Below are positions 5,826 to 63,817 of a stretch of 64,000 nucleotides of DNA, one piece after another; the first letter of the stretch is position 1, and each line of letters begins with the position of its first letter. The DNA is from Holothuria scabra (taxonomy: Eukaryota > Echinodermata > Holothuroidea > Aspidochirotida > Holothuriidae). Below the pieces are notes generated by a model. The model worked only from the letters and a program-made list of their open reading frames with translations, had not been told where the DNA came from and searched no databases. Both the position numbers and the translations under genes were made by a program. The DNA is taken from contig CM074188.1 of the NCBI GenBank assembly GCA_037179385.1, positions 24,631,318 through 24,695,317 of the forward strand. The letters run 5' to 3'.

Positions 5826-6590
5826 TGAATGGTACTAATTTGAACAAAGTGACTTCTGAGAAAGACCTTGGTATAGTTATTACAAGAGATTTAAAGTCAT
5901 CTAGGCAGTGTGCAGCTACTGCTGCAAGGGCAAATAGGGTGCTTGGGTTGATCAGGAGGAATTTAAGAGTTTTAGTAAAGAAATTGTGCTAAATTTGTAT
6001 AAGCAGCTGGTTCGACCCCATCTCGACTATGCTGCACAAGCCTGGAGTCCCTTCTTTGAAAAGGACAAATTGCTTTTAGAGCAAGTTCAGAAGAGAGCTA
6101 CCCAACTCATACCTGAGGTTAAAAATCTACCTTATTCCCAAAGGCTTAAGCTGCTTGGGCTTACCACTTTGGAGCTGAGAAGGATTAGGGGGGACATGCT
6201 CCAGGTATACAAATTTCTATCTGAAGGGAATTCTTTGTTAGCCTGCAGTTATTTAAAGGTCCAGAGTAATCCTCGGGTTAGAGGCCATTGCAAAAAGCTT
6301 GAAAAGTCTTTTGCTAGACTTGACATTAGGAAGTTCGTTTCTCTCATAGGGTTGTTAGTGAGTGGAATAGCCTGCCTGAGTGGGTTGTTAACTCCACATC
6401 AGTGCACCATTTTAAGGTTAATATTGACAAGTTTTTCCATGACTGTGGTAGAATCTAATCTTTCTGGGCTCTTAAGGTGTTGGTGGTTTGCTTTGTTTTG
6501 GGGGGTTTTTGGATTACAGGGCATCTTATGGGGCCTTTACAGCCCTCCTTTGCCCTTTAACCTGTTATGTTATGTTATGTTATGTAAGCG
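5826..6590 (+). pseudogene. LINE reverse transcriptase, 3' end fragment (CR1/Rex-like), broken
   Basis: 5'-truncated non-LTR retrotransposon. The first reading frame codes for KDLGIVITRDLKSS...ANRVLGLIRRNL. A one-base shift near 5978 leads into EIVLNLYKQLVRPHLDYAAQAWSP...EQVQKRATQLIP...RLKLLGLTTLELRRIRGDMLQVYK, the standard C-terminal RT/thumb pattern of CR1-like LINEs. A second shift near 6335 moves into a frame with VVSEWNSLPEWVV. The 3' end is a short TTATG tandem tail (about 6561-6585), typical of this LINE group. At least two frameshifts make it inactive. Confidence 0.85.
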
Positions 6591-6599
6591 CAGCTAGTC

Positions 6600-33642: not shown

Positions 33643-33729
33643 TTACATATCCGAAGGTAGAGTTTCATAGTCGTGCTCTCGAGCATCTAAGATTCCTTTG
33701 ATTACGCGGTAACATAGAAAGTAGTCATC
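33643..33729 (-). CDS. RPTP-like exon w21: last coding exon and stop codon
   Basis: 87 bp, acceptor CTCAACAG after a T-rich tract. It codes for DDYFLCYRVIKGIL..., the D2 end helix (usual EQYxFxYxxxxxxL), then a short acidic tail ending LPSDM and TAA at 33645-33643. A 3.4-kb intron with a 2-kb transposon separates it from w20. Confidence 0.88.
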   Translation of the reverse strand, partial: DDYFLCYRVIKGILDAREHDYETLPSDM

Positions 33730-36700: not shown

Positions 36701-39700
36701 CAAGGCCTGGTACGATGAAATGCGTAACCCCAAAAGAGTTCAAGCTGTCGCCCATGTAACTTTTTTGATTTCGCCCATATGAAGGGCAGATTCTTCAATT
36801 AACACCCCAACTTTTCAATGGTACTTACAAAAGCCAAATTTTGATTAAAACTTTTTCTTCTTAACAAACTCCAGATTTTAAAATTTTTGTTTAAAAAAAT
36901 CCAAATAATTCGGCGGGCTTCGCGCGCCTCAGATTCTACCAAGTCAATTCCCACTGGAACTAACTCATTGCCTCTATCGAGGACTCGAAATGCTGGCCCC
37001 CCTGTCGGGCAAATCCTGGCGCCACCCCTGATTAGAAGAGACGACTTTAGAAAAGAGCAATATTGAATTTGATGGTGAAAACATCGGTAAAAAAAGTAAA
37101 TAGTTACTTTCCTGCGTAATAAACTAAGACCAAACATACTCACAAATTTTGTAATCACATGACGGCATCTTCCTTTCAATTCGTAGACTGTTTGAAACAC
37201 ATCAATATCTCCACGGTTCTTCAAATTTCCCATTTCAGTTGCGATGGCAACGAAGACACCACACCTACTGCCCCCATCTCTGAAAGAATGAAAAGATAAT
37301 AATGTTATAATCTTAACAAACATACATTTGCGTCAAAAAGTGAAAGGAGAAAGTTTGCAAGTTTTTTTGTAGTATTAAGGCAGCCATTCAGAGCACAACT
37401 TTGCAAAAAAAAAAAAAAAATGGTTGAATCCAGTATTGTGTACACAAACCATCATTGGTGGCAAAATTTTTCTTAAACGTTTTTCTAGGAGACTACATGC
37501 AAGACAAGAGTACATTGGCGTAGCCAGGAGGTAGGGAGAGGCTTATAATCCCTAATCAAAATTCTCTCAAAAAATTGAAATGAAACAAAAAAAAAAACAA
37601 AAAACTTCAAGTGATGCTAAATGTTGCACTTTCGTAATCATATGGTTGTATTATTGTAACATGGGGTTACTTAAATTGTCCGAAATTTCTCAAAAGGTAA
37701 TCAGGCCCCATACCCAAGGCCGGTGATCTCCAATTCAGCAATTGGCCACGTGCCCTCGAACAAAAGTTAGCCTGTACGGCAGATAACACTTGTAGTTACT
37801 AACCGAGATTGCTTTATGTATACAAAATCAGACAGCTGCGCATGTTCCTTATAGACGAATCCTATCAGCACTTGCTTTTAGTGACTGTAGGCAGCCATTT
37901 GCGGGGTCAATCTGCCTTAAATTGTCCTCATTTTTCGTCTATATGTAATTTCAAAACCTCAAATACAGTGAAAGTGAGTGAATCAAGAGGCATTTCAGTG
38001 TACAACCATTCATGGTACAGTTACGCAAAGGAATTGAAAGATTAGAAGGTTAGAGGCCCCTCAATGGCTGACTAAAATCAGACCATCACTAGCTGTCCGG
38101 ATTCGTCTATAAGGACTTACAGGCAATGAACGGTCACCGTCCCTTTGGTTTTCACCACTTGTTGCATTTTGACCATTATTCTGATAAATCCAGCCATCTG
38201 ACTCTCATCTCGAGGCCACGAAGGAAGTTGAAAATGATTCACTTCAAGTTTTTTCTGTTTGTTAGAAAGAAATATATCATCACTTTTTTGAAGAAAAAGA
38301 TTATTTCCATCCTGAAACATATGTAGATATAATGAAACAATTAAAAAAGTTGACGATTAATTAGAACAGAAATAAATAGCATATTTACAACACGACTCAA
38401 TCGTGATAGGTCGATGAAGAGATTTTGCTTTATAAACTGATTTTTCACCAAAATATCGAGACGTTGAAGGTGTCTGTCAGCGGTCAGGTGAAAGGAAATG
38501 TTCATTACTGTTGTAATTACTGTTAAATGAGAATTACGGGGTATTTTAGGGTAAAGATTCACGTTAATTCTATGCAAGACAAGACAGATACTCACACGAG
38601 GTGATGAATAAAAACCGAAGATTAAGGACCATGATGGCAGGTCATTTTGTGCTGCTGCTGGTAATTAATAAATGCACGATTGTGGTGCAGAATCAATGTG
38701 ACGAAAATTTTGAAAACAAACTCTGATTGTCGCTCTAAAATCAACGGAGTAGAAATACCCCAGGGGCTCATGAGCAAGACAGCGAAGGGTCCAAATTAAT
38801 AATATCACAAACTCGATTTTCCAAAACAACTTCAGACAATCCTGTATAGACTCTAGTACAGTCCTATCTGTAGATGGTCGCCACTGACTGGGACAAAAAG
38901 GGCGCACCAAGATATCCGCCGTGAACCTATAAATCGTCTGATTTGACGACGACTCTGTAATATTTAAAGCAAAAGTTTAACTTTAATGGAACAATATCAT
39001 ATTCCTGCAATGCGTGAAGTGATTTTGACCTTAAATTGCCATATTTCAAAAATATTTCAACTTTCTTGCAAAATATGGCAATATACTTGAGCAAGTGTTA
39101 GCTTTCGCACAAAACCATAGCAGACGGCTATTTTGGTGCGCTTTTTCTCCCAATACGGTAGCGACAATGTACCGTGCAGTATGCTCTGTCCATGTATAGG
39201 AAGTCCGTGGTTTAAGTATATCTAAGTATATCTAAGATGAGAGCATGTATGCTTTCCTCTTATTTATTGAAATGCACGTGGACCACTTTTCAATTAATTA
39301 TATCCAAGTATACTTAAGAATATGTAAGTACACTTAAAGGGCGATTCTTTTTACCCCAAACTTACAGTTTTTGTAGTAGTCCACAAAAATTCTCAGTTGG
39401 TCAATCTCTTTGATTGACAGCCATTTAAAAAAAGGATGAATACCAAAGCTCTTATTACACCGCGTGTACTGTACTGAAAGTGTTTTGATTACTACAATGG
39501 GGGGTTTGTATACTCTTCTTGAAGCAATAATGCAGTGATGGGAGGGGCTTAAGTTAATAGGTTAGGAGAACTGGAAGTGTTAAGGTGAGAGGATTCGACC
39601 TTTACTCACCTTTGAAGAGGAATGTGACAGACTAAGTCTTTGTTGAAGAACACCACCAGAATTCTCTGGGTTGCCGATGCACTTGACGTGAATCTTGCCA

Positions 39701-42700
39701 TACCTCTTTTGCCCTATTTTGGGCAAGTAAGTTCCAATAATCTGTAAAATTAAAATCGATATTTGTATAAATAGGTTTAAAAGAACCGATTTACATGAGA
39801 AACATTTGTCAATATATTCTTCGTAACATTAACTTAATCGGAAACTCCAAATACCTCCCCTTTAGCTTCAATATAAACATAGATTGCAAGTATTATTTTC
39901 TTACAGAATCAGTGAACAGTGCTTTTATTATTTTAATATTTGTGACTAAATTTGTACAACTAAACTATGCCTGTGGTTAAATAATAAACCATCCAAGAAC
40001 TTTCAATTCATGTCGATAGGGTGTCGAACTCAGGCCAAATGCTAGTTGCGAAAAAACCCAAGCAGCAAAACTTTAGATACCAAGAGAATGTATTGTTTAA
40101 TGTAACTTGGAAGGGTTTTCACCACATTGGATTAAATCTACGGTATCCAGGGAAACAAGAACCAGCTTTAGAATTCACAACGCGTACCTCATTTACAACG
40201 AAAGGATATAATTAGTTCTATGCCGATAGGAGCACAACCCGAAATGACGCTGTATACCATTACCAACTTGTTAAACGGCAAGAGCGGCAAAGCGGGGTCT
40301 GACGCCCGGATCGTGAAATCTTAAGCTCACTATTGCTGGAAATACATCGGAACATTTACGTACTCACTAAACGGTTATTTAGGTCAGAACAATTATATTA
40401 CACTCAAACAGAATTTAGACTATATCACACCAATTGTGACTTATTTTGACCATCAAGGTCCTTTTCTTACACTACTGAACCATTTTGCTGGAGAACCCCG
40501 GATTGAATCCAATAGAGATTTCCACTGATCCGAACCATCCTGGCAACTAAAAAAATGAGGAGGGGGCGCTCTAGACCTGTCATTTCTTCCATGTAAAGCT
40601 AACTTGAGTAACTTCCCTGGTAACCCTTTTCAAGCTGACAATGTGATAATGCGATTAAAGTTGGAATGCATGAAGCTTTTGTAACGATTTTCAATATGAT
40701 ATACCCTTGTATTTCTCAAAATCAATTTTTTTAATAGGTTTTATAGTATTTATTCTATAACTTGATGACTTGCAGAATGCTACCACTCTTCTGAGAATGG
40801 AAAACAAAACTCCCTTAAGTAAACTTGAAGATTTCAAAATTGTTTCTTATTAGTTCACAACCACGCCCATTATCAAGACATATTTTGTAAAAGAGAAAGC
40901 ACGATATATTCCAAATTTAAATAAAAGACAAATAATCTTTCTTCCTGTAAATATGTTCAAGTTACAATAACCATTACAAAAACAATTTTAAAAACGAGAG
41001 CATATGTCATAAAACGCGTTTTCCGAATATTTCCTTAAATGTTTATTATTAATGTCACAACTTTTTATTTGGATATGATTTTTTCCTTTCGTCACGTGAA
41101 GTCACAAAAGAAAACAAATCATTAATATGGCGGGAACTGTCTTGCAATATTTTTTTACAGATCTTTCAACAAGTTTATTACAACCGTTCGCCTTAACATC
41201 TCAACGAATTAGTGATGCAGTGTAGTCCGGACTCGTGATTTCACAATTTGAAAGTCTCGGCCAGAATGGTTCATTTTTCCCCATTGAGAAAGTATAAGGA
41301 TTCTAGTCAGAGTCCGGATTCGAGTCCTTGAAAATTGAAAATTGCCGGACTCGTGACTTGAAGTCTCCAGACTCTACTGCAGCTCTGCAACTCGTGAAAT
41401 ACTCGTGAAGCACAGTTTTGGGATGAATTAAGAAACAATTGGGGCCAATTGATTTATTTCAATTCCAGTTATGGGAATTATTCCGTTTTGGTAGAGAAAA
41501 TTTACGAAGTTGGTCGCTTAGACCGATTGACAACTTAAATTTATGTAGCTTAGTGATTTTTTATTGAATAAAACAACCTCATAATAACTGGCCACCTTAT
41601 GCCAAAATAAATAGTTTACGCCAAAATTTCATTTTCGAATGAAGTTATTAATATCCATGTTTAGTCCTAGTCATAGTTCCTTGCTCCCTACCCTATGTTT
41701 AATCTATTCCGTCAGAATATTTTGCATTTAACTTGCATATGGTGTGGCTTTCTCAAATTCATCACAAAAATGAACCATTCAATCCTTACCTCGTTCTGGG
41801 AGTCGGTATCATTCAGCGATATGACGGAAGAACATTCATACTGGTATATCATTCTCCAGAAATTATCATTGGTGGACGGTAAAGGAGATTGTGCCATAAT
41901 AAATGATGTATCAGAGACCGCACTCTGCCCATAGAAAAGAGACAATTGAAAGTTAGGGAGGTGTAACACCTCATTGGGTTAGCCAAGAAATCAGGGAGTT
42001 GGCATACCTCTTTGGGTTAGCCAAGCAGCCTCTTCTTTAAAATTACCCATTAATGGCTGTTTTCACCATTTTGGGTGTCATTTTATCGAGTCAACTATTT
42101 TGCAACTTTTGAGACTAGATATGTACTCGTTCTTATGAGACAGAGCTTATTCTAGAGAAAGTGTTTGGTATAGTAGCATCCTCTTCAAAAATTTAGGATA
42201 AACCCTTTCCCCTCCCTCCCCAAATGTTGAAGAACACGCTATATTTCAGAACAAATATCATGATGAAACAATCTACAAAAATACGGAACTCTTTCTTAAC
42301 GGAGGAACAACAAACAAACAAACAAACAAAAATACAAAAAAAAAAAAAAAACCCAACAACAACAACAAAAAACAAGGAGCGGAAATTCACTCCAATAAGA
42401 GTGAAATTCACTCAAAAAGAGCAAAGTTTCACTCTTGATAGTGCCTATAGGGGTTCACTCTTAAAAAACAGTAATCCCCGAGGGCACTCGTTAAAGAGTG
42501 AATTTTCACTATTCTGGGAGTGAATTAACCCAATGGAGAGAATTCACACTTTCTACTCTATTAAAGAGTGACTTAGTTCAGTCTTGCTTTTAGAGTGCCA
42601 TCAATCCAACTTGAGTTAGTGTAGCAGACTATCCTGTTTCGTAATTGGCTCTTAAGGATCGTATGGCACTTTTTCTTCTCAATTTAGAAATTTGCTAGGG

Positions 42701-54700: not shown

Positions 54701-57700
54701 CTTGATAAAGTATTGGATTATTTCAATGTGGTGGTGAAATGTTGACTTACCTTAATATAACTTCCATTGTAGTAATCAGATTTGGAGTCTCCTGAAATAT
54801 CTTGCAGTTTAACCCGAGAATGATCATCTGAAAACAGAGGAAGGGAGATGAGGATTAAAAAGCAGCTGGAGTCATCTCAAAAGACTTTACACACTAAAGT
54901 CACAGGAGTGTAAATATAGGAGCACCTACTCCCACGAGGTAGAATCCAACCGTACCGGCTCAAACTCACGCGGGTATTCTATCCGAATCCGAACAGAGCT
55001 TGAGTTTGGTGACTGTAGGCAGCCATTGGTGTGGTCCTTCAGTCTTAAATCGTCTTAATTTATTGTCTACATGAAATTTAAACCCTCATATTCAGTGAAA
55101 ATTGAAAGAATTAAGATACAATTTAGTGTACAACCAACCATGATACAGGTAATCGAGGAAATCGAAAGATTAAAAGGTGATAGACCACAGATATGGCCGA
55201 TTGAAATCAAACCATCACTTGTTGTCCGGATTCGTTTATATAGCGCCCATATACGTGACTTCAGTGCGTTTCAATTTGGCATAGCCTACTGGATGAAACT
55301 GATCATGCACAGTACGCGTGTCACCGATACCGAGCGCACGACAGCACCTTATAGTTGTTGTATAATGGACTTCTTGATTTCAAAATAGACGCGGAACGCA
55401 CTAACGTCGGTGCATGGCCTCTATACATTCACAATATGAGCTGTTTGCATTGTGTCGGTATGAGTTGTAACGCTGAAAGCGCACGCTTTGTAGAAACGTT
55501 TGATTTCTTCTGTTACTAAAGAATGAGACCAATCGGGAAATACATTTTGGTTGCACCGACAGTCTGGAAAAGGTCATGGCAGTAACCAATGGAGGAGTGA
55601 CTATTTTTGCCAAGCCAGATTAAAACGTCACATTATTCAATTCATTATTCATGTCATTTTCTGCAAAAGTTTTTTCTCAGTCGCCTTTGATATCAGTCTA
55701 GCCGTAGTTTCTTACCCCCAAATTTTACTATGAGTAGTATGAAGTAACTTTACTATCTCGTATCTGTTGTGGTACACTTTCCTTCCCATCATGAAGTGAA
55801 CGCAGTTGTTCCCCAACTAGACCATTGTAAGCAAAAAGTTTTCTTGTTCCAGAATACGCATAAAGTTGTAATAAATTAAAATTGAAAATGTGTGTCCTGA
55901 TTACTTCTGCGAATGTGATAACATCAATGCCCCATTAGATGCCTGTTCGTCAATACAGTGGGGTAACATGACTCTGGTTTTGGTAAAGAGTACTAGAGTA
56001 GGATACAAGTGAAAGGAGTTGAGTAAGTTCGGATGATGATATTTCAGCTCAGTTAGAGGTAGTTAAAAACTTACATGGAAGGAGTCCTGAATCGACATCA
56101 TCGTCCCTCGCTTTTGCATCTGTCCAAGGATGTTGCTGACCACGAGGTAAAGTCTTAATGGTGGGAAACAAAAGTTGAATAAATGAATGTATACACTCTG
56201 ATAAGCAACGTACTTAGCGATTAAAGACTTATTTTGCCCCTACTTTATAAACACGTTTAAATTCTGAACATGTTTAGTAATTAAATACTAGATGTTTAGA
56301 AATTAAACGTATCTAAAACGGAATGTATAGAAATTAGACACACGTGTTTAACATCTGAACATGTTTACAAAGTTGGGGCAGGAAAGTGTTTAGAAAGGCA
56401 TTTAATTACTTAACACTTTTTGCAGTGTATAATTATAGGCCAAAGGAGCATATTGTAATACACCCAATCTTGAATTTAAAACCAACTCTACGATAGGCCG
56501 TAGTCCTTATCAAGGAAGGAAAGATTGAAAGGAAAACGTTTTTATCTTAAGACTGGGTTGCCTCAAGGATATTAAGGCTTGTTAAGTCTACGTGAAAAAG
56601 TGTTTACAAAATGTTTAATTCCTAAACACCCTTTTTTGGGTGTTGTTACCTGAAATTCTTCCGTCAAAGTAATCTCAGGTGACGACGATCCATTCCATAA
56701 CTGTCGTGGTAGGTTTTTGATTTTAATTTCTCCAAGAACACCCGATTCGGTCGTAAGACTATCCTGAAAGCTTCCGTAAGCTGGTATTGCCTGGTAAAGT
56801 CCTTCGGGCTCTGTTTCTCCTAATAATTCATCATTCTTAGTTTCTTCATAAGTTACTTCATCGTCCACAGTAAAACTTTGTTGAGTCTGCATTTTTTTCT
56901 CGTTCAGGTTCTGTTTGTGTGTACCATTTATCGAGTTCTGTTCATCAATCCTATCATGTTCGGTGGTCTCGTATGTAGTATCCGCTTCTTCGTCGCTTGC
57001 AATAGGTTCAATGTAATTCCTAGAAGTGTAACCTGAAGTTTTGTCAGTGTTACCCTTTGAATCAACAGATTTATGGTAGTATCCTGCATTCGCTTTTCGG
57101 AGTGCTTCCCTCCATCTTTCTCTACTATTCGCTGGATTAGTGCGATCTGCCGCAGGTTTGTCGCTTGGTATTTGCTTTTGATCTCCCTCCATATGTGTGA
57201 ATGATGTCTCGTAAGCCATCCTTTTAGACTTTTCCCCTCTTTGGGGAATCCGTGTTCCTTTCTTGTCCACGGGTGATGTTATTCCATCCGTAGAGTAAAT
57301 TTTTGAAGAATTTTTCTCAGTCATTCTGAGGTGCTTTTTCATTTCTGGTATCATTTCGTAATTTTCTAACCTATTTCGTATCACTTCCGGGTCATCAATA
57401 TGGTCTTCGTTATCTGCGATTGGTTCAAAGTATTCCCTCGAAGCGTTGCTCTTCATTGTTCCCGTTTGAGAGATAAAATACTTAGAATTGTCTGCCAACC
57501 TGCTCCCAGAGGTGTCAAGGCGTCCATATCCTGATGCAGCATCTTCGTAAGCAGACGAATTGTGTTTGCGGTTGGATAAATTCTTCAAAGGGAGTTCGGC
57601 ACCGAGCAACGATTTCTCATACGGTAATCTCGCAGGAATTTTTGATTTTTTACTCTGAGCTGTATTGACAGATTGGGAATAGTTCGTTCTTCCATATTTT

Positions 57701-60700
57701 GATCCTTTCTTTTGAGAATTTCGAAGACTGTCTGGAATGGTTTCGTAGACTTCACGAGATGACCTGGTATAGATGCTGTCTTTTTTCGCTGTCGTGCTCG
57801 TGTGATCGTCACTCTCGATCGGCTCAAAGTACTCCTTAGATGTACGATTCGGCTCGTCGTCATTCTGTGGTAATATTGTTTTTAACTGAGAACCATTTTT
57901 ACCGAGTGCACTGGGATTTTTTAAAGGTTGACCAATTTCGTCGAGGGGCTTTTCATAGCTGCCAGTTGCACTCTCGTATGATTCTGACTCACGACCTTTG
58001 CCCATTTTACGTTTTAAGAATGGATTAAGGGGGACCTGTAAGGACGTCTCGTATGAAGCCCGTGTCTTTCCGTAAACAGATGCATTATACGGATTCTCAT
58101 TGCCCTCCTCTTCGTCTGCAATTGGTTCAAAGTAAGAAATGCGGTCCTCTTCCGAACCGATGTGTTCAAAATATGGTACCTGAAGTAGCATTTCATCCGG
58201 AATAACATTGCGTTCGTATTGTTCCCGACGAACCGTCTGCTTAGAACCGTTTTCTGAGCTGTCTACGCCCCCTTGTGTAATTCCATTCAAAACGCTGTTA
58301 CCATTGCTATCATCTTGTTTGGAGCTTTCCGTTGGTTGGTCGCTTGGTTTGGGAGATGGAGTCTGGAAAGTAGACACGCCACCTGAAAATATATTGCCCC
58401 GTTAAAATAAAATTAGATAATGATCACAATACTAAAATTGAGGAAAGTACAAATTGAGACTCTCGGCTTGGAATTTTCGTTAATCTGAAGACATTGATCA
58501 ATAAAAGAAAGTGTACATGAATAAACGGTTGAATGAATGGATGAATAAAATTAATCGCGATAGTGCTTTCTGTGCAAAGTCATAACTTCCATTCTGCTCT
58601 CCTCTCCTTAGCATTCCTTTCCAACTTAAAGTACAAGTTACGGAAAGTAAGTCGTAAGTGAAAGTATCACTCTTACAAAAGCACGCACCTTGCTACATGA
58701 ATTACGACATCATGCATGCATTCGATGTGTTCTTTTCCGGCATGAGATACCTAATCCCTTCGTACTATCTTACTACCTAAGCACCATTAAAACTAATTCG
58801 GTGCTTTACAAAGAAAATATTTCTGGGCACAGTTAAGGTTGCAGATACAACGTGACAGAAATTTCCTGCGTGGCTGTACGGCATGTTCTTCATCACTCCT
58901 ATTGTAGCAGCCCAGTTGGCAAATTTTTACAGAGGTGCTGAGCACACAGAGCCCCCGGGATGGAAAGAGAGCTTAAAGATCTGTTTGACCCTGACCCATA
59001 AAACCACACAAGTTACCGAAGGGGCAAAAAGGCAATTTGCAGAGGATGAAAAAAATAAGGGGCTTTGACTTTGTCACGTTGTCTAAATGGCACTTCGACG
59101 TGACGTCACAACTGTTAAGCAACGCGCACTGTTAGGCAAAATCAACAATGTATAAGTGCAAAGGTCACGCATGGGTCGTGAGCTGCTGCTCAGCTAGCTT
59201 TACTAGCGAGTGCAATACACTTGTTTTGCCCGTCAAAAGGGGCTGGACTTGTGGCTCCCGATAAAGCACTTGACATGACTCTTCCAAAGCTCCGTTCCAC
59301 TTTTTATTTTCTAATTCAAACAATTTTTTGTCAGGCTATTGCTCAGTGCCCTGTCTTATCAATAGAAACGTCGAGTCAAATAGTTTACCCAACATTTTTG
59401 AGGGAGGAGTGAAGGAAGGAAAACTGACTGTTAAAGATTAGACCACGGGTGTATTTACTCACCATTCTCTCCCGAAACGTCAGTTGGTGTAGGAGCCGGT
59501 GTATCGCCGTTCTTCGAGTTAGATAATAATTTAGTGTAATCCGAATTCCGGTTTCTGTTTTGCAATCCCATATATCCGTTAGGATCTTTCAACGTGTCTG
59601 TGGAATAAACACGACCTTTATTTATCATCGTGGAGGAAAACAACTCTTTTGCTAACATGTCTACACATTGACGTACCCACTCAACTTTTTCACGTAAATG
59701 TCGTCGGTGACTGGTGAAGGATGTGGGGGAAAAAATTTCGGTCGAAATTTCCACTAATACGCAAAATGTAACCAGCTTTATAAATCAGACCTGTCATCAC
59801 ACAATGAAAGATAGAGATACATACATGAAGACAATGGTGTAGACATGTTTAGATGCTGAACACACGAACCCAAGTCCTCAACATTTTGCTGTTGAACACG
59901 TTTAATTTCTAAACATTCAGTGTTTAAAAGCTAAACATTTTTTTGAATTTATACGTGTTTACAAAGTGGGTGTAAAGTAAATGTTTAATTGCTAAACACG
60001 TTTTTAGAGTGTAGGGTTTTATTTACACCCCAAGCGATTGGGGCATGCCAAAAGCCGTCCATTTTTGTCACCTACCTCTCTATTTCTGAGGAAATGATAC
60101 TGTCCAAACTATTTTGATTGACTGTAAACAAAGGTTAATTTGTACCCTTACTTTTATTTCCGTTCTCGTCATTTGTGTTTTCTGTAGTCGAGCCTTCTTT
60201 ATTAGGGAGAAGCTGAGTGTAATCTTTATCAGATGGTCTCTGTGTTAAGCCTGCGTAGCCGGAGGCATCAAGGCTGGGTTCTGTGGGAAGATATGCATGA
60301 GGTGTTATCGTCACATGCCCATTGGAGATGACATTCAAACATTACAACATAACAAAGGGTAACGAGTGTATAACATCCATCCACGGACTTATATACATGG
60401 ACACAGCATGTAACGTATACATCCTATCCGTAGATGGTTGTCACTGGCTGGGACAAAAAGGGGCGCCAAGATGGCCACCGTGAAGCTATAAATCGTCTGA
60501 TTTGACGACGACTCTGTAATATTTTAAACAAAAGTTAAACTTGAATGGGAAACAATATCATATTCCTGCAATACATGAAATGTCTTTGACCTTACCTTGG
60601 CATATTTCAAAAATATTTCAACATTCTTGCAAAATATGGGAATATACTTGAGCAAGTCCAAACTTCCACACAAAACCATAGCAAAACGGCCAACTTGGTG

Positions 60701-63700
60701 CGCTTTTTCTCACACGTACGGTAGCGACAATGTACAGTGCAGTATGCTCTGTCCATGCATAGGAAGTCCGTGCATCCATCGAATTGTAATACCCGTACTC
60801 GTACCCAAATCATTACGCCAGTCATAATATTTCTTTTGTCCATGTTTGCTATCAACATAATTGGGAAGGGGAGGGGGGGGGTGTGAAGGCGCACATATCT
60901 GAATAAGTCCTCCTCAACTCTATGGGAAACCCCTAGTGGAAAATTCATGAAGAGTGAAACTAATTAGCTCATTTTGTATTGCAGCACTTCGAACTGAAAC
61001 TTTGGAACGACCAAGAAGCTCAAGCAAAAAGTGTATGCTGCAGTACGTCATTGTATGGCATAGCGTCTGGAAGCAAACCCGTACCCCTAATACTATCTAT
61101 AGTTCATTTTATAAATTCTTTAAGAAAGAATTGCTAAATATGCTCTTTAAGATGATCACAAACCAAACAATAAGACCTGTTAAACAGGTCATTTTGATTT
61201 GAGGGTTAAAGCCAAAATTTATTTTGACGGTATAGTATGTAAGAGGAAGAGGCGCTTTTTAATCATACCGGTGAAATTCTAAGCTTTGCCTATGGGAATG
61301 AAAGGTGCAAAATTTTCAAACTTCTCAGAAGTTAACATCACAAAAACATAAGATCATGATGAAGAATTCGCAAAGCTTTCAGAAAAAGAACTGTTACGTG
61401 AGTTTATGTTACGTGAACTAGATGCAGTTGTACCTGTGGTAAGATAACATCCTCTTATATCTCTAGACGGATAGGGAGATAGTCGATGTAACTTTTATGT
61501 TTACGACAATTACTTCTATTAGACATATTTCTGCTTCTTAAAAAGCTTAATTTCATCCCTTTTTAGTTTCTTCAAAGTGATCAATCTTACAGTACATTCG
61601 CGATGAACACGTGTTACAATTGTAAAACAATAACGCTCAAGTAACATGGAGAAGAGCTTTACGAAACCTTACAGGTCTAATCCTCTCACCCCAAATAGTT
61701 CCAATTCTCTTAACCTACTAGCTTAAGCCCCGCCTGCCGCAAACTGTCTAAAATTCATCCTCATCATTATAAAATCGCAGTTTATTGCTTCAGGGTGAGT
61801 ATGCAAGACCCAATGTGTAATCGAAACACTCTCAGTACAGTGTATGCTGTTTAAAATATGAACTTCGGTACTCTGCCTTTTTTAAACTTCCTGTCAATCA
61901 AAGAGCTGTGCCAATTGAGAATTTCTGTGGACTACTACCAAAATTGTAAGTTGGGGTGAATGGATTAGGCCTTTAACTAGAATGTCTATGCACCCGAAGG
62001 ACCAGTAAAAGCGAGAACTGGTCGTCAACCCCTATTATATTGTGTCTTTATCGAAAACCCTCAAATAATAATAATATCAATTGCAGGGGACTCAACCTGT
62101 TCCTGTGGGTACCAACTGTGTGAGCACAAATTAACAGAAAATTCACTTGCTTTTTTATTTTTTTGGGGGTGGGGGTTGGGCGGGGTAGGAATGTATCAAC
62201 AATTATTTAAGCAAATGACCATCTTAAATGGATTACTCTCGAGACAACAACAAAATGGGATAATTTGTAGGTGAAACTTTTTACCTGCAACATCTAAAGA
62301 TGAACTATTTCTTTGTGATACGTTGATACCCGTGTACAGTTTGTTATCTTCGTCACCTTGTCCATACATCATGTAGGTAGATGGTCCAAAGTCACCGATC
62401 TTCATGTACCTCGTAAGATCTTCTGCCCGTTTGTGCAACTGTTGGTATGGTGAAGGTCCATTGGCAAGACCTTGGTAAAATGAGAAACAAAAAGTTTGAA
62501 ATATCGAAACAGGTGGAAGGATCACACGACTTTTTGACAATTGTGTGGTTTAAAGTTATTTTTGATATATTAAGGTATTACATAATAAGGACACAAAGTA
62601 GAAAGTCTGGTGTCAGGTTCATCCCTTTTAAGATGAGTTCACCCCAACGACGAAATCTGCTGCTGTTGATCGGCAGGACGAAATTTTTTTTATGATAGCT
62701 TGAATAGGGGAATTTTTAAGACAAAAAATGGCAAAGTCCTATTCCTACTGATATCAAAACTGTTGCGTCCCGCCCGCAATTCGCAACCGAATCTGGTTCA
62801 ACCATGAACCCTCTTTTAGACTGAACAGATACACAAATATTTTAGATAGCATGCGCAAAAAGAAGAAGTAAGTGTCTTTACTTCCAGGATACAATTTTTC
62901 TACACTTACCAGTTTCGGCAGGTAATTTTTCCTTTTCTTTGACTTGTAGCTTTCTCTTTGTACGGATTATGAGGCTAAAACAAGAAATGGATACGCTGGT
63001 GAATATGATCATATGTCAACTTCTTTTTTATTGAACTAAACGAAATTTGTAGGTTCTAGAACTTTCAAACTGATTTTAAATTACCCCCCCCCCCCCTTCA
63101 TTGAGCAATGTCGCTTCGAGAAAAGAACTAACACAGAATTCATCCGTGCGTCACCTCCTAAAATTGTTGGATAAGGAACAGTGGCGACGCTGGAGGGGGG
63201 GGGGGAGGGGGTGAGAGCAGACACCCCTCCCCCCGATTTTGTCCTTGCCTCCCCACTTGACTTCCAAGTTAGGTCATGTAGGAGTTGGGTTAGTCGAAAA
63301 ATGTACCTCTCCTGAGGACTGCGCCCCCTGGACCCCCTTACCAGGAAGGGGAGCTGTCGTTTCCCCTTTTTTCTTCTGATCCCCCAAAATTATCATTTGT
63401 CTTTTATTTGCTTCAAAAGGAAGAAAAAGGAATCACCTAAGGGGTTTGCAAAGTGTCAGCCTTCTTGGTAATAATTTGCTCAACATGGGTACTTGCTAGA
63501 CAACCTTTTGAATTTCTTCAACCACTATTTCAAAAAGATGACATACCGATCTACCAATTATTTTTAGAGTGCACCACATTTCAAGAGAAATATTTCATTC
63601 CTAATCAATTTTCCTGTTTAATTCACTACACTTGTTTCAATTTATATCAAATCGAGTTTTTCTTACCAAACACAAACCAAGGAAACCAAAAATAGCGAGA

Positions 63701-63817
63701 TTGCGATCACGATAACAATAACAGTAATTCCTACATCGACAACTTTCTTAGTCCCTGCAGTCGTCAGTATAACAGGCCCGGTTGACGGAGTTGTTGAAAT
63801 AGTTCTTGGCTCTGATC
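33643..63817 (-). CDS. Receptor-type protein tyrosine phosphatase-like gene, 5'-partial, 21 exons in window; tyrosine-rich tail and degenerate tandem PTP domains
   Basis: Single-pass membrane receptor built from 21 exons whose GT/AG sites and phases all match: 63817-63667, 62974-62910, 62470-62285, 60280-60152, 59597-59463, 58382-56650, 56153-56075, 54827-54751, 54005-53969, 53590-53502, 51970-51857, 50046-49898, 48711-48570, 47126-46998, 45330-45231, 43412-43336, 41924-41790, 39741-39610, 38311-38121, 37279-37144, 33729-33643. Seen: stalk 1-27, membrane span about 28-53, ITAM-like pairs at Tyr80/93, 142/154 and 185/197, tyrosine-rich region 223-799, PTP D1 about 800-1070, PTP D2 about 1072-1356. 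Family knowledge: RPTPs reverse tyrosine phosphorylation through D1, while D2 is usually regulatory. Here D1 has lost its key residues, so the protein is more likely a scaffold or pseudophosphatase receptor (inference). The ectodomain and start codon lie beyond the window edge. The closest named vertebrate member cannot be settled from the sequence alone. Confidence 0.93.
33809..34060 (+). mobile_element. TTAA-type MITE family 1, copy e
   Basis: Starts TTAAAGGGCAAGCGCAG and ends TTTTGCCCATTAA. Lies in the last intron of the RPTP-like gene, about 80 bases upstream of the last acceptor in gene orientation. Confidence 0.78.
34185..34445 (-). mobile_element. TTAA-type MITE family 1, copy f
   Basis: Starts TTAAAGTGCAAGGGCAGTC and ends GACTGCTCTTGTCCTTTAA. 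Inverse orientation to copy e, 125 bases away, so the two could pair in the transcript. Confidence 0.8.
34480..34612 (-). mobile_element. TTAA-type MITE family 1, fragment g
   Basis: Half-length copy with the GAGCCATTTATGAAACAAGATAG-type block, directly beside copy f. Confidence 0.6.
34983..37030. mobile_element. hAT-like element copy 2, 2.05 kb, in the last RPTP intron, 8-bp target duplication
   Basis: Ends CAGGGGTGGCGCCAG and CTGGCGCCACCCCTG are perfect inverted repeats. ATTAGAAG flanks both sides (34975-34982 and 37031-37038). It shares ordered blocks with copy 1 at 11.9-15.9 kb. Non-autonomous: no transposase. Confidence 0.93.
37144..37279 (-). CDS. RPTP-like exon w20: PTP D2 P-loop
   Basis: 136 bp, acceptor TTTCAG, donor GTGAGT. 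With w19 the P-loop reads HCLDGGSRCGVF, so Cys1282 and Arg1288 of HCX5R are both kept. DIDVFQTVYELKGRCRHVIT follows, as in other D2 domains. Confidence 0.93.
37849..38111 (+). mobile_element. TA-type MITE family 3, copy a
   Basis: Ends TATAGACGAATCC and GGATTCGTCTATA, about 263 bp. Its right end is nine bases from the 5' splice site of exon w19. Confidence 0.85.
38121..38311 (-). CDS. RPTP-like exon w19: PTP D2 WPD-loop and catalytic Cys
   Basis: 191 bp, acceptor TTTCAG, donor GTAAGT. VNHFQLPSWPRDESQ shows the D2 WPD loop as WPR (1251-1253). The exon ends VTVHC (His1281, Cys1282). A TA-flanked MITE begins about nine bases into the following intron. Confidence 0.92.
38850..39225. repeat. Dispersed repeat, partner of 60385-60775
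   Basis: Around 370 bases align with 60.4-60.8 kb, for example AAATCGTCTGATTTGACGAC and the shared right end AGGAAGTCCGTG. Left end not resolved. Confidence 0.75.
39336..39603 (+). mobile_element. MITE family 2, copy c
   Basis: AAAGGGCGATTC start and GGATTCGACCTTT end, with the family's internal text. The right end stops about six bases from the 5' splice site of exon w18. Confidence 0.8.
39610..39741 (-). CDS. RPTP-like exon w18: PTP D2, YLP segment
   Basis: 132 bp, phase 0, acceptor TTTACAG, donor GTGAGT. It codes for YLPKIGQKRYGKIHV, the D2 form of the YWPxxG...YG-x-I-x-V strand. A MITE begins about six bases into the following intron. Confidence 0.88.
41205..41410. repeat. GGACTCGTGA-type repeat
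   Basis: AGTCCGGACTCGTG, GAGTCCGGATTCGAGTC and GCCGGACTCGTGACTTG occur within 200 bases, forming inverted and direct repeats. No gene. Confidence 0.45.
41790..41924 (-). CDS. RPTP-like exon w17: PTP D2, FIMAQSPLP-FWRMIY segment
   Basis: 135 bp, phase 0, acceptor GGGCAG, donor GTAAGG. FIMAQSPLPST and NFWRMIYQ are the D2 counterparts of FIATQGPLPxT and DFWRMVWE. Here one exon covers what two exons (w9, w10) cover in D1. Confidence 0.9.
42388..42596. mobile_element. AGAGTG palindromic element family 4, truncated copy
   Basis: Many GAGTGAAATTCACTC-like palindromes; right end CTTTTAGAGTG. It directly abuts the family 1 copy at 42597. Confidence 0.65.
42597..43206 (+). mobile_element. TTAA-type MITE family 1, copy h, interrupted
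   Basis: 42597-42742 and 43103-43206 are the two parts of one family 1 copy, ending in GACTGTTCATGCCCTTT. A family 4 element sits between them. Confidence 0.75.
42743..43102. mobile_element. AGAGTG palindromic element family 4, complete copy
   Basis: Ends CACTCTAAAA and TTTTAGAGTG are perfect inverted repeats. The body is packed with AGAGTGAA and TTCACTCT units. It is cleanly inserted into a family 1 MITE between CCTT and TAAAATATT. Confidence 0.85.
43336..43412 (-). CDS. RPTP-like exon w16: PTP D2, YRVVL-YINA segment
   Basis: 77 bp, acceptor CAACAG, donor GTAAGC. It codes for DSYRVVLKSLEK...GSYINATLVN, matching the D-x-x-RVxL...YINAxxV core. It has the same length and phase as exon w8 of D1, which reflects the old tandem duplication of the PTP domain. 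Confidence 0.9.
44046..44312 (+). mobile_element. TA-type MITE family 3, copy b
   Basis: TATAGACGAATCCGAGCAG start. End worn (GTTCGACTATA). Contains an AT-rich ATTAATTAAAT insertion. Confidence 0.7.
45231..45330 (-). CDS. RPTP-like exon w15: N-terminal part of PTP D2
   Basis: 100 bp, acceptor TTTTGCAG, donor GTAAGC. It contains KNRYPEVLP, a good match to the KNRYxNILP motif. D2 thus keeps the KNRY loop that D1 has lost. Its phases fit w14 and w16 exactly. It has no long open frame of its own and was found by homology and phase. Confidence 0.87.
46998..47126 (-). CDS. RPTP-like exon w14: end of PTP D1 and linker
   Basis: 129 bp, phase 0, acceptor TTTCAG, donor GTACGC. EYLLVYETLI closes D1 (usual EQYxFIxxAL). 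A helical linker then ends in ALEREFE, the start of D2. Confidence 0.88.
47315..47440. repeat. Family 4-like fragment with G15 run
   Basis: AAAGTGAAACTTCGGTC, TTTCACTCTC and TTTCACTCTTCTTGGAGG recall the 42.7-kb element. Incomplete. Confidence 0.5.
48071..48518 (+). mobile_element. MITE family 6, copy interrupted by a family 3 element
   Basis: Outer parts match 55239-55424 (GCGCGTTTAAATTTGGC start side, GCATGACCTCTATA end). The family 3 copy lies at 48111-48372. Confidence 0.78.
48111..48372 (+). mobile_element. TA-type MITE family 3, copy c (nested)
   Basis: ATAGACGAATCCGACCAACG start and GGATTCGTCTATA end. The uninterrupted family 6 copy at 55.3 kb reads TTTGGCATAGCCTACTGG where this one is filled, which shows the insertion point at TA. 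Confidence 0.85.
48570..48711 (-). CDS. RPTP-like exon w13: PTP D1 P-loop end (catalytic Arg replaced)
   Basis: 142 bp, acceptor TTCCCAG, donor GTAAGT. It continues the P-loop as NGVGATG, so the signature reads Cys980-Ser-Asn-Gly-Val-Gly-Ala986: the catalytic Arg of CX5R is Ala. The following GVFIA, VHEFVRNMRQHRVDMVQ is otherwise typical of D1, and the Q-loop Gln is kept. Confidence 0.92.
49318..49882. mobile_element. Foldback element with long arms beside exon w12
   Basis: The arms at about 49318-49505 and 49693-49882 are inverted copies (shared blocks CTCGAGATATT, GAACTTGAAGCAA, TGATGTCATGGATTCAC). About 190 bases per arm. The right arm ends about 15 bases from the 5' splice site of exon w12. 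Confidence 0.8.
49898..50046 (-). CDS. RPTP-like exon w12: PTP D1 WPD-loop and P-loop start (degenerate)
   Basis: 149 bp, acceptor TTTCAG, donor GTAAGT. The general-acid loop WPD is WHE (946-948). The P-loop begins VQC (Gln979, Cys980) where active enzymes have VHC. The FVRHVKSVR helix between them is well conserved, so the alignment is firm. A 149-bp exon ending just after the catalytic Cys, with Ser981 split across the intron, suits an RPTP gene. Confidence 0.9.
50141..50275 (+). mobile_element. Worn SINE fragment, same family as 21.9 kb
   Basis: Shares CTACTGCC...TGCTC...CAATGG and GGTTACAAACTGGACCGCAAAACTC with the SINE bodies. The tRNA part is lost. Confidence 0.5.
50350..50645. repeat. 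Degenerate TTATG-type pentamer array
   Basis: About 300 bases of units such as GTTAT, GTTGT, GCTAT and GTTCT. The Cys-rich ORFs here are produced by the repeat. The same pentamer ends the LINE at 6.5 kb, so this may be an expanded LINE tail. Confidence 0.7.
51591..51845 (+). mobile_element. TA-type MITE family 3, copy d
   Basis: ATAGACGAATCCGATCAGC start and GGATTTGTCTATA end. The right end is about 12 bases from the 5' splice site of exon w11. Confidence 0.82.
51857..51970 (-). CDS. RPTP-like exon w11: PTP D1, YLP segment
   Basis: 114 bp, 38 codons in phase 0, acceptor CATTCAG, donor GTAAAT. It starts YLPSEKD, equivalent to the YWP of the PTP core, and ends in the strand that carries the conserved IRxxxxxK pattern. 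An inverted-repeat element begins about 12 nt into the following intron. Confidence 0.88.
52028..52393. mobile_element. GGGGCGCAAATC-ended hAT-like MITE with 8-bp target duplication
   Basis: Ends AGGGGCGCAAATC and GATTTGCGCCCATGC. TGATATCC lies at 52020-52027 and 52394-52401. The GC-rich middle (GGCGAAGCCCGCGGAAGC) resembles 18.5 kb. Confidence 0.88.
52566..52730. mobile_element. CACTGTAAAAAT-ended MITE, 165 bp
   Basis: CACTGTAAAAATTACGG and ATTTTTACAGTG ends, with CTGTAAATTTACAG inside. A small relative of the 1.35-kb element at 19.1 kb. Confidence 0.75.
53502..53590 (-). CDS. RPTP-like exon w10: PTP D1, YWQMVWE segment
   Basis: 89 bp, acceptor TTGTCAG, donor GTGAGT. It codes for TENYWQMVWESKTELVVIL, a clear match to the T-x-x-FWxMVWE...IVML core of PTPs. 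It ends in ASGKS. Compared with D2 of the same protein, about eight residues are missing before the next exon's YLP. Confidence 0.9.
53969..54005 (-). CDS. RPTP-like exon w9: PTP D1, 37-bp exon
   Basis: 37 bp, acceptor TTTCAG, donor GTATGT. It codes for DQFNKINFIAAK, the counterpart of the x-FIATQ strand; a short exon here is familiar from animal RPTP genes. The Gln of the usual TQGP motif is a Lys (AAKVPK). Confidence 0.87.
54526..54672. repeat. GTGTTTAGAAATTAAAC-type repeat (family 7), copy a
   Basis: CACACTCTAAGAAATTTAAC start and inner TTAAATATG and TTTAGCAATTTAAC motifs. Worn. Confidence 0.5.
54751..54827 (-). CDS. RPTP-like exon w8: PTP D1, DHSRV segment
   Basis: 77 bp, acceptor TTTTCAG, donor GTAAGT. 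It codes for DHSRVKL...SDYYNGSYIK, matching the conserved DHSRVxL...SDYINAxYI of classical PTPs, with INA changed to YNG. Phases match both neighbours. Confidence 0.9.
54977..55240 (+). mobile_element. TA-type MITE family 3, copy e
   Basis: CTATCCGAATCCGAACAG start and GTCCGGATTCGTTTATA end. It adjoins the family 6 copy directly. Confidence 0.8.
55239..55424 (+). mobile_element. MITE family 6, uninterrupted copy
   Basis: About 185 bp. Its two ends (TATAGCGCCCATATACGTG and TGCATGGCCTCTATA) are imperfect inverted repeats. Gives the empty-site text for the family 3 insertion at 48.1 kb. Confidence 0.72.
56075..56153 (-). CDS. RPTP-like exon w7: N-terminal edge of PTP domain 1
   Basis: 79 bp, donor GTAAGT. 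With the end of w6 it reads EEFQTLPRGQ..., the usual start of an RPTP D1. It ends at the LP of LPYDHSRV, whose Tyr826 codon is split. The usual KNRY phosphotyrosine-loop motif just before it is absent (VDSG in its place). The acceptor (AAG before ACTTTACC) is a weaker match. A CAG 15 bases further in would keep frame but remove conserved residues. Confidence 0.8.
56192..56429. mobile_element. Family 7 MITE, copy b
   Basis: TACACTCTG start and GCAGTGTA end. Repeated GTTTAGAAATTAAAC-like units and AAACACGTTT inside. Confidence 0.6.
56590..56645. repeat. Family 7 fragment at the exon w6 donor
   Basis: AAAGTGTTTACAAAATG and TTAATTCCTAAACACCC, like the other family 7 copies. Starts within about ten bases of the 5' splice site after exon w6. 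Confidence 0.5.
56650..58382 (-). CDS. RPTP-like exon w6: 577-residue tyrosine-rich repeat (docking) region
   Basis: One 1,733-bp exon, acceptor TTTTCAG, donor GTAACA. It codes for residues 223-799 with 29 tyrosines and no cysteine, rich in Ser, Asn, Lys and Glu, so probably disordered. Degenerate repeats of roughly 100-140 residues are visible. The marker Y-F/I-E-P-I stands at Tyr305, 406, 539 and 678, usually after S-K/R-E/N and before an acidic run. YEx(S)L/F stands at 332, 476 and 612, and YExIP at 434 and 563. SYESATGSY and AYEDAASGY form another matched pair. Five tyrosines are YxxP sites of the kind bound by Crk/Nck SH2 domains, and eleven are followed directly by Glu. The open frame runs 25 codons past the donor, but the next exon supplies the PTP start, so splicing at 56650 is preferred. 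Confidence 0.88.
59463..59597 (-). CDS. RPTP-like exon w5: third ITAM-like tyrosine module
   Basis: 135 bp, acceptor TTCCACAG, donor GTGAGT. Tyr185 in YMGL and Tyr197 in YTKL are eight residues apart. It is paralogous to exon w4 and has the same phases at both ends (it begins with two bases and ends with one base of a split codon), so duplication of a whole exon would keep the frame. It ends in a Pro/Thr linker. Confidence 0.85.
59833..60014. mobile_element. Family 7 MITE, copy c
   Basis: AACACGTTTAATTTCTAAAC, GTGTTTAAAAGC and a TTTTTAGAGTGTA end. Confidence 0.6.
60152..60280 (-). CDS. RPTP-like exon w4: second ITAM-like tyrosine module
   Basis: 129 bp, acceptor CCCACAG, donor GTAAGG. Tyr142 in YAGL and Tyr154 in YTQL are eight residues apart, a textbook ITAM spacing. 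The peptide SGYAGL also fits the looser ITIM pattern S/I/V/LxYxxL. The exon resembles w5 in order and spacing (D-x-x-G-Y-x-G-L, then D-Y-T-x-L-L-x-N), so the two look like an exon duplication. A Thr/Asn/Glu-rich linker follows. Confidence 0.85.
60385..60775. mobile_element. CACGGACTT-ended MITE
   Basis: CACGGACTTATATACATGG at the left and CCATGCATAGGAAGTCCGTG at the right are imperfect inverted repeats. Body shared with 38850-39225. Confidence 0.72.
61673..61977 (-). mobile_element. MITE family 2, copy d
   Basis: Reverse orientation. AGGTCTAATCCTCTCACCCC start and GGGGTGAATGGATTAGGCCT end. Complete and useful as the family reference. Confidence 0.82.
62285..62470 (-). CDS. RPTP-like exon w3: first ITAM-like tyrosine module
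   Basis: 186 bp, acceptor TACCAAG, donor GTAAAA. It holds Tyr80 in YQQL and Tyr93 in YMKI with nine residues between the two motifs, which fits the ITAM spacing YxxL/I-x(6-12)-YxxL/I. Further tyrosines follow at 104, 107 and 117 (YTGI). The acceptor ends in AAG, not CAG, but the reading frame and codon phase hold on both sides. Confidence 0.83.
62910..62974 (-). CDS. RPTP-like exon w2: stop-transfer and basic juxtamembrane
   Basis: 65 bp, acceptor TTTTAG, donor GTAAGT. It finishes the membrane span (LII) and adds a strongly charged juxtamembrane piece rich in Lys, Arg and Glu (residues 51-71). Both split codons join cleanly: Cys50 upstream and Gly72 downstream. Confidence 0.85.
63667..63817 (-). 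CDS. RPTP-like exon w1: Ser/Thr stalk and transmembrane segment
   Basis: The acceptor is CTTGCAG and the donor GTAAGA. It codes for a Thr/Ser/Pro-rich stalk (residues 1-27) and then an uninterrupted Val/Ile/Leu-rich span (about 28-53, completed in the next exon), followed by Arg-Thr-Lys-Arg-Lys. The basic residues after the span place the tail inside the cell. The exon starts with two bases of a split codon, so at least one more coding exon lies upstream beyond position 64000. Confidence 0.88.

What the first reader, a model, noticed from the sequence alone, without database searches (positions are those of the whole stretch)
33643..63817. Receptor combining ITAM-like motifs, a large tyrosine-repeat scaffold and tandem degenerate PTP domains
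Exon by exon, one minus-strand gene joins a membrane span, three ITAM-like tyrosine pairs, a 577-residue Tyr-rich repeat and two PTP domains. Known RPTPs have short juxtamembrane regions and an active D1. ITAMs normally recruit Syk-family kinases through tandem SH2 domains. I know of no described RPTP with this layout. Inference: the protein is a phosphotyrosine hub, perhaps an immune or adhesion receptor, whose PTP-like domains bind or shield phosphotyrosines and do not remove them.
Basis: partly seen in the sequence, partly recalled or inferred. Interest (0 to 1): 0.88.

Follow-up and report, generated by a model that had tools for sequence, protein, structure and literature searches.

The report
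Sea cucumber receptor with dead phosphatases
This gene, apparently from a sea cucumber, encodes a cell-surface receptor built from a phosphatase whose two enzyme domains look dead and whose inner tail carries immune-type tyrosine switches, so a protein type that normally removes a signal seems to have become one that carries and perhaps holds it.

Summary
One minus-strand gene runs through 21 exons at exactly 63817-33643: one open frame, every internal splice GT-AG, phases consistent. Six more exons beyond the window (to about 79155) complete a 1784-residue protein with FN3-type ectodomain and one clear membrane span. A relative (P0001, 1832 residues on a 6403-base contig, so I infer cDNA) has the same order of parts, 1266/1768 residues identical. 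This answers the "different mRNAs" objection for a relative, not for this species.

Three ITAM-like pairs exceed chance (0 of 100,000 shuffles). D1 lost the CX5R arginine (QCSNGVGATG) and WPD aspartate. D2 keeps KNRY and CX5R but lacks the WPD aspartate and Q-loop glutamine, perhaps a natural substrate trap. All 8 annotated members of this sea cucumber clade carry NGVGA[TN]G in D1 and long tails with 7-12 tyrosines; 15 other RPTPs do not. The genome also encodes a Syk/ZAP-70-type SH2 kinase.

Best reading: a dual-pseudophosphatase receptor signalling through its phosphorylated tail; a new variant of RPTP. Function is inferred.

The parts
63667..63817 (-). E1: stalk end and transmembrane segment
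   Evidence: AG/GT flanks, hydrophobic run; only 9/46 aligned residues identical to P0001
62910..62974 (-). E2: basic juxtamembrane exon (KRKLQVKEKEK)
   Evidence: best of 5 phase-compatible candidates, but the next scored close (9.7 v 9.2); chosen for the basic run and backed by P0001, 10/17 identical
62285..62470 (-). E3: ITAM-like pair 1 (YQQL-x9-YMKI), phase 1-1 exon
   Evidence: 49/61 identical to P0001
60152..60280 (-). E4: ITAM-like pair 2 (YAGL-x8-YTQL), phase 1-1 exon
   Evidence: 25/42 identical
59463..59597 (-). E5: ITAM-like pair 3 (YMGL-x8-YTKL), phase 1-1 exon
   Evidence: P0001 has this cassette twice
56650..58382 (-). E6: 577-residue exon with 29 Tyr (5 YFEP/YIEP/YFEH-type, 11 YE)
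   Evidence: one locus among the 26 matches scored (of 555 candidates) in the genome
56075..56153 (-). E7: start of D1; KNRY replaced by DDVD
54751..54827 (-). E8: D1
53969..54005 (-). E9: D1 micro-exon
   Evidence: matches P0001
53502..53590 (-). E10: D1
51857..51970 (-). E11: D1
49898..50046 (-). E12: D1 WPD region (VWHE) and P-loop Cys (IVQC)
48570..48711 (-). E13: D1 P-loop remainder (SNGVGATG; Arg to Ala)
46998..47126 (-). E14: end of D1 and D1-D2 linker
45231..45330 (-). E15: start of D2 with intact KNRY
43336..43412 (-). E16: D2
41790..41924 (-). E17: D2
39610..39741 (-). E18: D2
38121..38254 (-). E19: D2 WPD region (WPRDE) and HC of the P-loop
37144..37279 (-). E20: D2 P-loop remainder (HCLDGGSRCG keeps CX5R); Q-loop Gln lost
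33643..33729 (-). E21: end of D2, C-terminus and stop

Best explanation
It is a single-pass receptor, most likely of a sea cucumber, descended from a tandem-domain receptor tyrosine phosphatase that has lost its catalytic residues and whose tail has become a phosphotyrosine platform. Shown from sequence: gene structure, order of parts, loss of the D1 catalytic residues, retention of KNRY and CX5R in D2 with loss of the WPD aspartate and Q-loop glutamine, conservation of the tail tyrosines in a relative, a Syk/ZAP-70-type SH2 kinase in the same genome. Inferred: a ligand clusters the FN3-type ectodomain; Src-family kinases phosphorylate the three ITAM pairs; tandem-SH2 Syk docks there (the Tyr-to-Tyr spacing is that of ITAMs, as recalled) and, with Src kinases, phosphorylates the long tail, which then recruits further SH2 proteins much as LAT does; D1 is a structural pseudodomain; D2 can hold but not hydrolyse phosphotyrosine and so protects, or competes for, particular phosphosites.
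For: Continuous 1784-residue frame through 27 exons; same full order in P0001, whose 6403-base contig could not hold this gene as genomic DNA if its introns resemble the 45 kb here. ITAM pairs above chance; 9/9 tyrosines of E3-E5 kept in P0001. E6 tyrosines kept 26/29 against 387/548 other residues (Fisher 0.017). NGVGA[TN]G in D1 of 8 of 8 annotated members of the sea cucumber clade (P0006-P0012 and P0020; in P0012 the preceding HC is missing), of P0001 and of the window gene, while the 15 other RPTPs, an A. japonicus LAR-type among them, keep the arginine, 15 of 15. Juxtamembrane 149-790 residues with 7-40 Tyr in these 10 against 55-137 residues with 0-5 Tyr in the 15. Eight CX5A D1 domains form one clade (98/93). 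Syk-type N-SH2 exon: 6e-33 to ZAP-70, 1e-14 to the next family; C-SH2 and kinase exons in order downstream; a Src-like SH2 exon (L105, 48%) also exists.
Against: No expression, phosphorylation or binding data. The tail layout is known from two sequences; a tail search that scored 7998 candidates returned nothing else. Tyrosine density does not separate the groups: 0.037-0.067 in the 10 members, 0.000-0.055 in the 15 others; length and number do. The 10 and the 15 contain near-copies and are not random samples. Four tail sites fit the loose ITIM pattern with Ser at -2. In E6 phenylalanine (9/11) and tryptophan (2/2) are conserved too, and P values are only about 0.02. The comparison of D2 with engineered trapping mutants is recalled. 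Three H. leucospilota relatives (P0011, P0012, P0020) have lost the D2 CX5R arginine (HCINGVGLSA), so a D2 trap is not family-wide. One H. leucospilota record also holds an apparently active D1.
Confidence: 0.5

Rival explanations
1. Inhibitory receptor: the YxxL/I sites act as ITIMs and recruit SHP-2 rather than Syk, so the receptor replaces its own lost phosphatase by a docked one.
For: Four sites fit [SIVL]xYxx[LIV]; exons close to the SHP-2 N-SH2 bait exist in the genome (L089 73%, L096 63-69%).
Against: Pairs are 12-13 residues apart Tyr to Tyr, the ITAM spacing; tandem ITIMs that bind SHP-2 are usually spaced further (recalled). All four fits use Ser at -2, the weakest form (recalled).
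Confidence: 0.2
2. Substrate-shielding decoy of PTPRU type: the PTP domains compete with active RPTPs for shared substrates at cell contacts, and the tail is only a regulatory spacer.
For: Two pseudo domains, as in PTPRU, which binds substrates of related phosphatases (PMC7320164); many RPTP paralogues with intact P-loops in the same genome could share substrates (39 of 49 P-loop loci read).
Against: D1 lacks the arginine that holds phosphate, unlike PTPRU D1, which keeps it (recalled); the tail is much longer than in 15 other RPTPs and its tyrosines are conserved.
Confidence: 0.2
3. An active phosphatase after all: D2 (HCLDGGSRCG, KNRY) has residual or unusual activity, for example on another substrate.
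For: D2 keeps CX5R and KNRY.
Against: WPD is WPR followed by an alignment gap, and the Q-loop Gln is Thr; D2 domains of human RPTPs are described as inactive (PMC7320164, abstract).
Confidence: 0.07
4. A decaying pseudogene or relict without function.
For: Catalytic residues are lost; only one locus of this tail was found in the genome.
Against: 5,355 coding bases (stop included) stay open through 27 exons; D1 and D2 are 86% and 84% identical to P0001 although the stalk/TM/basic part is 31%; the relative is apparently transcribed (inferred).
Confidence: 0.03

Closest known systems
Sea cucumber proteins annotated as RPTP mu/T/F/kappa-like or uncharacterized (Apostichopus japonicus P0006-P0009; Holothuria leucospilota P0010, P0011, P0012, P0020)
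   Same: PTP domains in tandem (P0020's D2 is incomplete as annotated), NGVGA[TN]G in D1, long juxtamembrane with 7-12 Tyr; those put in the trees fall in one clade
   Different: Tails 149-222 residues; no close-spaced ITAM triplet and no 577-residue exon, though P0010, P0011 and P0020 have one wide-spaced pair; ectodomains differ (FN3, EGF-type, sushi by precomputed Pfam); 31-40% identity in D1-D2
PTPRU (vertebrate R2B RPTP)
   Same: Receptor with two pseudophosphatase domains (PMC7320164, abstract and passages)
   Different: Other changes in D1 (WPE, GSRQ; same passages); no ITAMs or long Tyr tail (recalled); MAM-Ig-FN3 ectodomain (recalled)
Trojan family of birds (Mystran, Trojan, Thracian)
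   Same: FN3-bearing receptors, Trojan leukocyte-specific; one neighbour is a predicted RPTP (Mystran), another has an ITAM (Thracian) (PMC4372362, abstract and passages)
   Different: There ITAM and PTP lie in separate proteins; here both are in one chain
ITAM receptors and LAT-type adaptors
   Same: Close-spaced YxxL/I pairs; long membrane-anchored tyrosine tail
   Different: No PTP domains in those (recalled); for the tunicate Botryllus LAT and SLP-76 are named as missing parts of an otherwise present ITAM/ITIM pathway (PMC12065747, passage cut off)

Membership tests
Tandem-domain receptor protein tyrosine phosphatase (by descent) | Two PF00102 domains in tandem after one membrane span | tested here: met
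Tandem-domain receptor protein tyrosine phosphatase (by descent) | Adhesion-type ectodomain with FN3 | tested here: met
   three fn3 stretches in P0001; window gene's ectodomain 276/444 identical to it, not scanned on its own
Active receptor tyrosine phosphatase | D1 HCX5R | tested here: not met
   QCSNGVGA
Active receptor tyrosine phosphatase | D1 WPD aspartate and KNRY loop | tested here: not met
   WHE and DDVD
ITAM receptor | YxxL/I-x6-9-YxxL/I in a cytoplasmic tail above chance | tested here: met
   three; 0 of 100,000 shuffles of E3-E5, 1 of 20,000 of the whole tail
ITAM receptor | Tandem-SH2 Syk-family kinase encoded in the organism | tested here: met
   (exons in order; no spliced model built)
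ITAM receptor | Phosphorylation by Src kinases and Syk docking | not testable with these tools
   needs biochemistry
PTPRU-type pseudophosphatase RPTP | No catalytic competence in either PTP domain | tested here: inconclusive
   sequence predicts it for both; activity not measurable here
PTPRU-type pseudophosphatase RPTP | R2B MAM-Ig-FN3 ectodomain (recalled) | tested here: not met
   in P0001's ectodomain only fn3 passes its Pfam cut-off
Trojan family | CCP plus FN3 ectodomain (PMC4372362, passages) | tested here: not met
   no CCP/sushi match up to E 1 in P0001

The most novel reading that the evidence does not exclude
Sea cucumbers turned a receptor phosphatase into its opposite: a one-chain immune-type receptor that fuses, in cis, the roles that vertebrate lymphocytes divide among CD3-zeta (ITAMs), LAT (long tyrosine scaffold) and a phosphotyrosine-holding domain (D2 as a natural substrate trap), with D1 fixed as a non-binding spacer. 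The arginine loss in D1 arose once and preceded a radiation of receptors with diverse ectodomains and longer tyrosine tails.
Probability: 0.25. Interest if true: 0.88.

Novelty: new variant of a known kind. Interest (0 to 1): 0.72.

Why it matters
RPTPs are known as erasers of ITAM signals (CD45 and CD148 act so on Dectin-1; PMC10815196, passages). Here ITAM-like pairs and RPTP domains sit in one molecule and the eraser looks dead. If the reading is right, it shows how an enzyme family can be turned into a signal-bearing receptor family, offers a candidate for the ITAM-bearing upstream receptors that PMC5978004 (passages) infers for invertebrates with a Syk/CARD-CC/Bcl10 pathway, and gives a natural test of substrate-trapping pseudophosphatases.

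Tried and rejected
Considered and rejected: two separate genes (P0001 joins all parts); assembly or exon-joining artefact (27 exons, consistent phases, relative collinear); chance motifs; bacterial effector origin (two NCBIfam effector models matched at 8.7e-5 to 1.6e-3, far below their cut-offs; I read this as the shared PTP fold); multi-copy element (one locus carries E6 among the matches scored); a tandem repeat in E6. Led nowhere: tail-only protein search (only P0001); self-BLAST of E6 (nothing for it and nothing for the shuffles, so no test); a genome search with the ITAM exons alone (not completed); literature searches for a description of this receptor or of sea cucumber pseudo-RPTPs (none seen in the listings of an open-licence library that lacks most subscription papers; a 2006 sea urchin phosphatase survey is recalled and was not read). 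Structure prediction was not run: the spliced protein is not contiguous in the window and P0001 exceeds the length limit.

Dropped before counts: I left out P0012, P0016, P0017, P0018 and P0023, all domains covering 150 or fewer profile positions (so P0010's first set and P0020's D2), and P0005 and P0030-P0032. In one search, at least one listed hit that spans the P-loop (C8:10613524-10613742) had not been fetched, and two others stop near it (C10:48253213, C8:31323994). Only 30 of 61 SH2 matches were examined.

Full report
GENE. The window is C10:24631318-24695317 of an unnamed 1.19-Gb genome. On the minus strand 21 exons from 63817 to a stop at 33643 give one open frame; all internal introns are GT-AG and all phases agree. 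Comparison with P0001 moved the start of E7 from 56135 to 56153. E2 is the least certain exon: five candidates fit the phase and the best two scored 9.7 and 9.2; P0001 supports the one chosen (10/17 identical). Reading 50 kb beyond the window with P0001 as guide located six further exons at window-scale positions 79155-79074, 74390-74130, 69697-69368, 68051-67728, 66480-66239 and 64882-64783; the start codon was chosen by eye. The product is 1784 residues: hydrophobic, signal-like N-terminus, a Cys-rich segment, FN3-type region, membrane span, basic stretch, three ITAM-like pairs, the 577-residue exon, D1, D2.

RELATIVE. P0001 has 1832 residues on a 6403-base contig. The window gene needs about 45 kb for the same protein, so I infer that P0001 is a cDNA; its source carries no name. 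Over 1768 aligned residues 1266 are identical: ectodomain 276/444, stalk-TM-basic 20/64, ITAM exons 102/150, Tyr-rich 414/574, D1 231/270, D2 223/266. P0001 has four ITAM pairs, the last two in near-identical cassettes. E3-E5 all begin and end in phase 1, so they can be copied or skipped without breaking the frame.

WHAT ANIMAL. The nearest named proteins by D1-D2 are from the sea cucumbers Apostichopus japonicus (E to 5e-125) and Holothuria leucospilota (E to 7e-107), both Holothuroidea. Some C8 paralogues in this genome look close to H. leucospilota sequences by eye. I infer a holothuroid; the species is not shown.

PTP DOMAINS. Both are PF00102 domains (4.5e-49, 2.9e-49), and the pair aligns across solved RPTP tandem domains. 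Motif table: D1 KNRY becomes DDVD, WPD becomes WHE, HCSAGVGRTG becomes QCSNGVGATG. D2 keeps KNRY and reads HCLDGGSRCG, but WPD is WPR followed by a gap, and the Q-loop glutamine is threonine. D1 therefore lacks residues that hold phosphate, though not the cysteine itself. D2 has lost the general acid and the Q-loop glutamine but keeps the binding frame; from memory, those are the positions changed in engineered substrate-trapping mutants. That D2 traps phosphotyrosine is inference.

FAMILY. Of the 8 annotated members of the sea cucumber clade (P0006-P0012, P0020), 8 have NGVGA[TN]G in D1 (in P0012 the annotation lacks the preceding HC; P0007 has NGVGANG). Two other A. japonicus hits (P0014, P0023, delta/LAR-like) keep the arginine. 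In the H. leucospilota record P0010 a second PTP set looks active in D1 (WPDMLVP, HCSAGIGRTG). In trees (rows left out as told in Tried and rejected) eight CX5A D1 domains form one clade (98/93) and seven D2 domains of the family one clade (99/99, with a long-branch warning); the second D1 of P0010 joins the D1 clade with weaker support (84/56) and in the combined tree pairs instead with a D1 of the sponge Oopsacas. In this genome the DNA pattern for NGVGATG occurs at 9 places against 0 for the reversed control: six lie in PTP exons seen or 60 (four on C8, the window gene, one on C12), one more on C8 lies about 6 kb from a PF00102 match, and C1 and C11 were not examined. Of 49 P-loop loci fetched, 39 keep the arginine, 4 have alanine, 5 have lysine and one lacks the loop in that exon. 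They were chosen from the best PF00102 hits, so dead copies are probably under-counted.

TAIL. One search compares juxtamembrane segments. In the 10 CX5A receptors (window gene and P0001 included) they are 149-790 residues with 7-40 tyrosines; in 15 other RPTPs 55-137 residues with 0-5. Tyrosine density overlaps (0.037-0.067 against 0.000-0.055), so what differs is length and number. TM position was set by a hydropathy maximum, so lengths are approximate; both sets contain near-copies and are hits of two searches, not random samples. ITAM-like pairs: three here, four in P0001, one wide-spaced pair each in P0010, P0011 and P0020, none in the other five members or in the 15. Shuffling gives three close-spaced pairs in 0 of 100,000 trials for E3-E5 and in 1 of 20,000 for the whole 750-residue tail. 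Tyrosine conservation: E6 26/29 against 387/548 (P 0.017), E3-E5 9/9 against 92/140 (P 0.027); F 9/11 and W 2/2 in E6 are also high. Motifs in the tail: YxxP five times, YFEP/YIEP/YFEH five times, YE eleven times, no YxN and no YxxM.

PARTNER KINASE. Among 61 SH2 matches in the genome (30 examined) is C8:44965408-44965641, whose best solved relatives are ZAP-70 and Syk N-SH2 (6e-33 to 3e-30), the next family (Abl) lying at 1e-14. Downstream, in order, are three pieces of a C-SH2 and two kinase pieces before the fetched stretch ends; the kinase pieces lie some 20 kb further on, so their membership in the same gene is inferred (bait recalled). SHP-2-like N-SH2 and Src-like SH2 exons also exist.

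LITERATURE SEEN. PMC7320164 (abstract and passages): PTPRU has two pseudophosphatase domains and binds substrates. PMC4372362 (abstract and passages): Trojan family. PMC5978004 (abstract and passages): Syk with CARD-CC/Bcl10 in invertebrates. PMC12065747 (passages): ITAM/ITIM signalling in Botryllus and Hydractinia. PMC10815196 (passages): CD45 and CD148 dephosphorylate the Dectin-1 ITAM. PMC13409769 (passages): a receptor-type tyrosine phosphatase F-like protein in starfish coelomocytes. PMC4883820 (one passage): Syk in oyster. No listing that I saw describes this receptor (searches named in Tried and rejected).

VERDICT. The architecture is real and, so far as could be searched, undescribed. 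It is an RPTP by descent, not by predicted activity. What it does is inference: most likely a phosphotyrosine-bearing receptor using Syk-type kinases, with D2 as possible holder of phosphosites.

Noticed in passing
G000 contig C8, about 3.6-48.7 Mb: Very large set of PTP exons on one chromosome: 152 PF00102 matches genome-wide (lower bound); by my count 112 of 150 listed rows are on C8. Most P-loops read look intact (39 of 49).
   Followed up: partly
G000:C8:31204955-31463595 (L070, L072, L076, L078, L079): Five exons with P-loop SAGIGKTG: the catalytic arginine replaced by lysine.
   Followed up: no
P0010 (Holothuria leucospilota): One annotated protein holds two membrane spans (by eye) and two PTP sets, one with a CX5A D1 and one apparently active; probably two neighbouring genes fused by annotation.
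   Followed up: partly
P0001 residues 634-693: Two near-identical ITAM cassettes side by side, where the window gene has one: looks like a recent phase-1 exon duplication.
   Followed up: partly
P0001 residues 35-123; window-scale 74390-74130: Cys-rich N-terminal segment, 72% identical between the two species, with no Pfam match up to E 1.
   Followed up: no
window 63667-63817: The stalk/TM exon is only 9/46 identical to P0001 although its neighbours are about 60% (E2 10/17, ectodomain 276/444).
   Followed up: no
G000:C8:44936000-44965641: Syk/ZAP-70-type kinase gene: N-SH2, C-SH2 and kinase pieces in order.
   Followed up: partly
window 5938-6594 (+): 219-codon open frame that looks like the end of a LINE-type reverse transcriptase (by eye).
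   Followed up: no
window about 60523 and 38976 (-): A shared translated string (NITESSSNQTIY) in two introns of the gene, so probably an interspersed repeat (by eye).
   Followed up: no
G000:C1:2555713, G000:C11:9415042, G000:C8:3871897: Further exact DNA matches to NGVGATG whose own context was not read; possible extra CX5A receptors.
   Followed up: no
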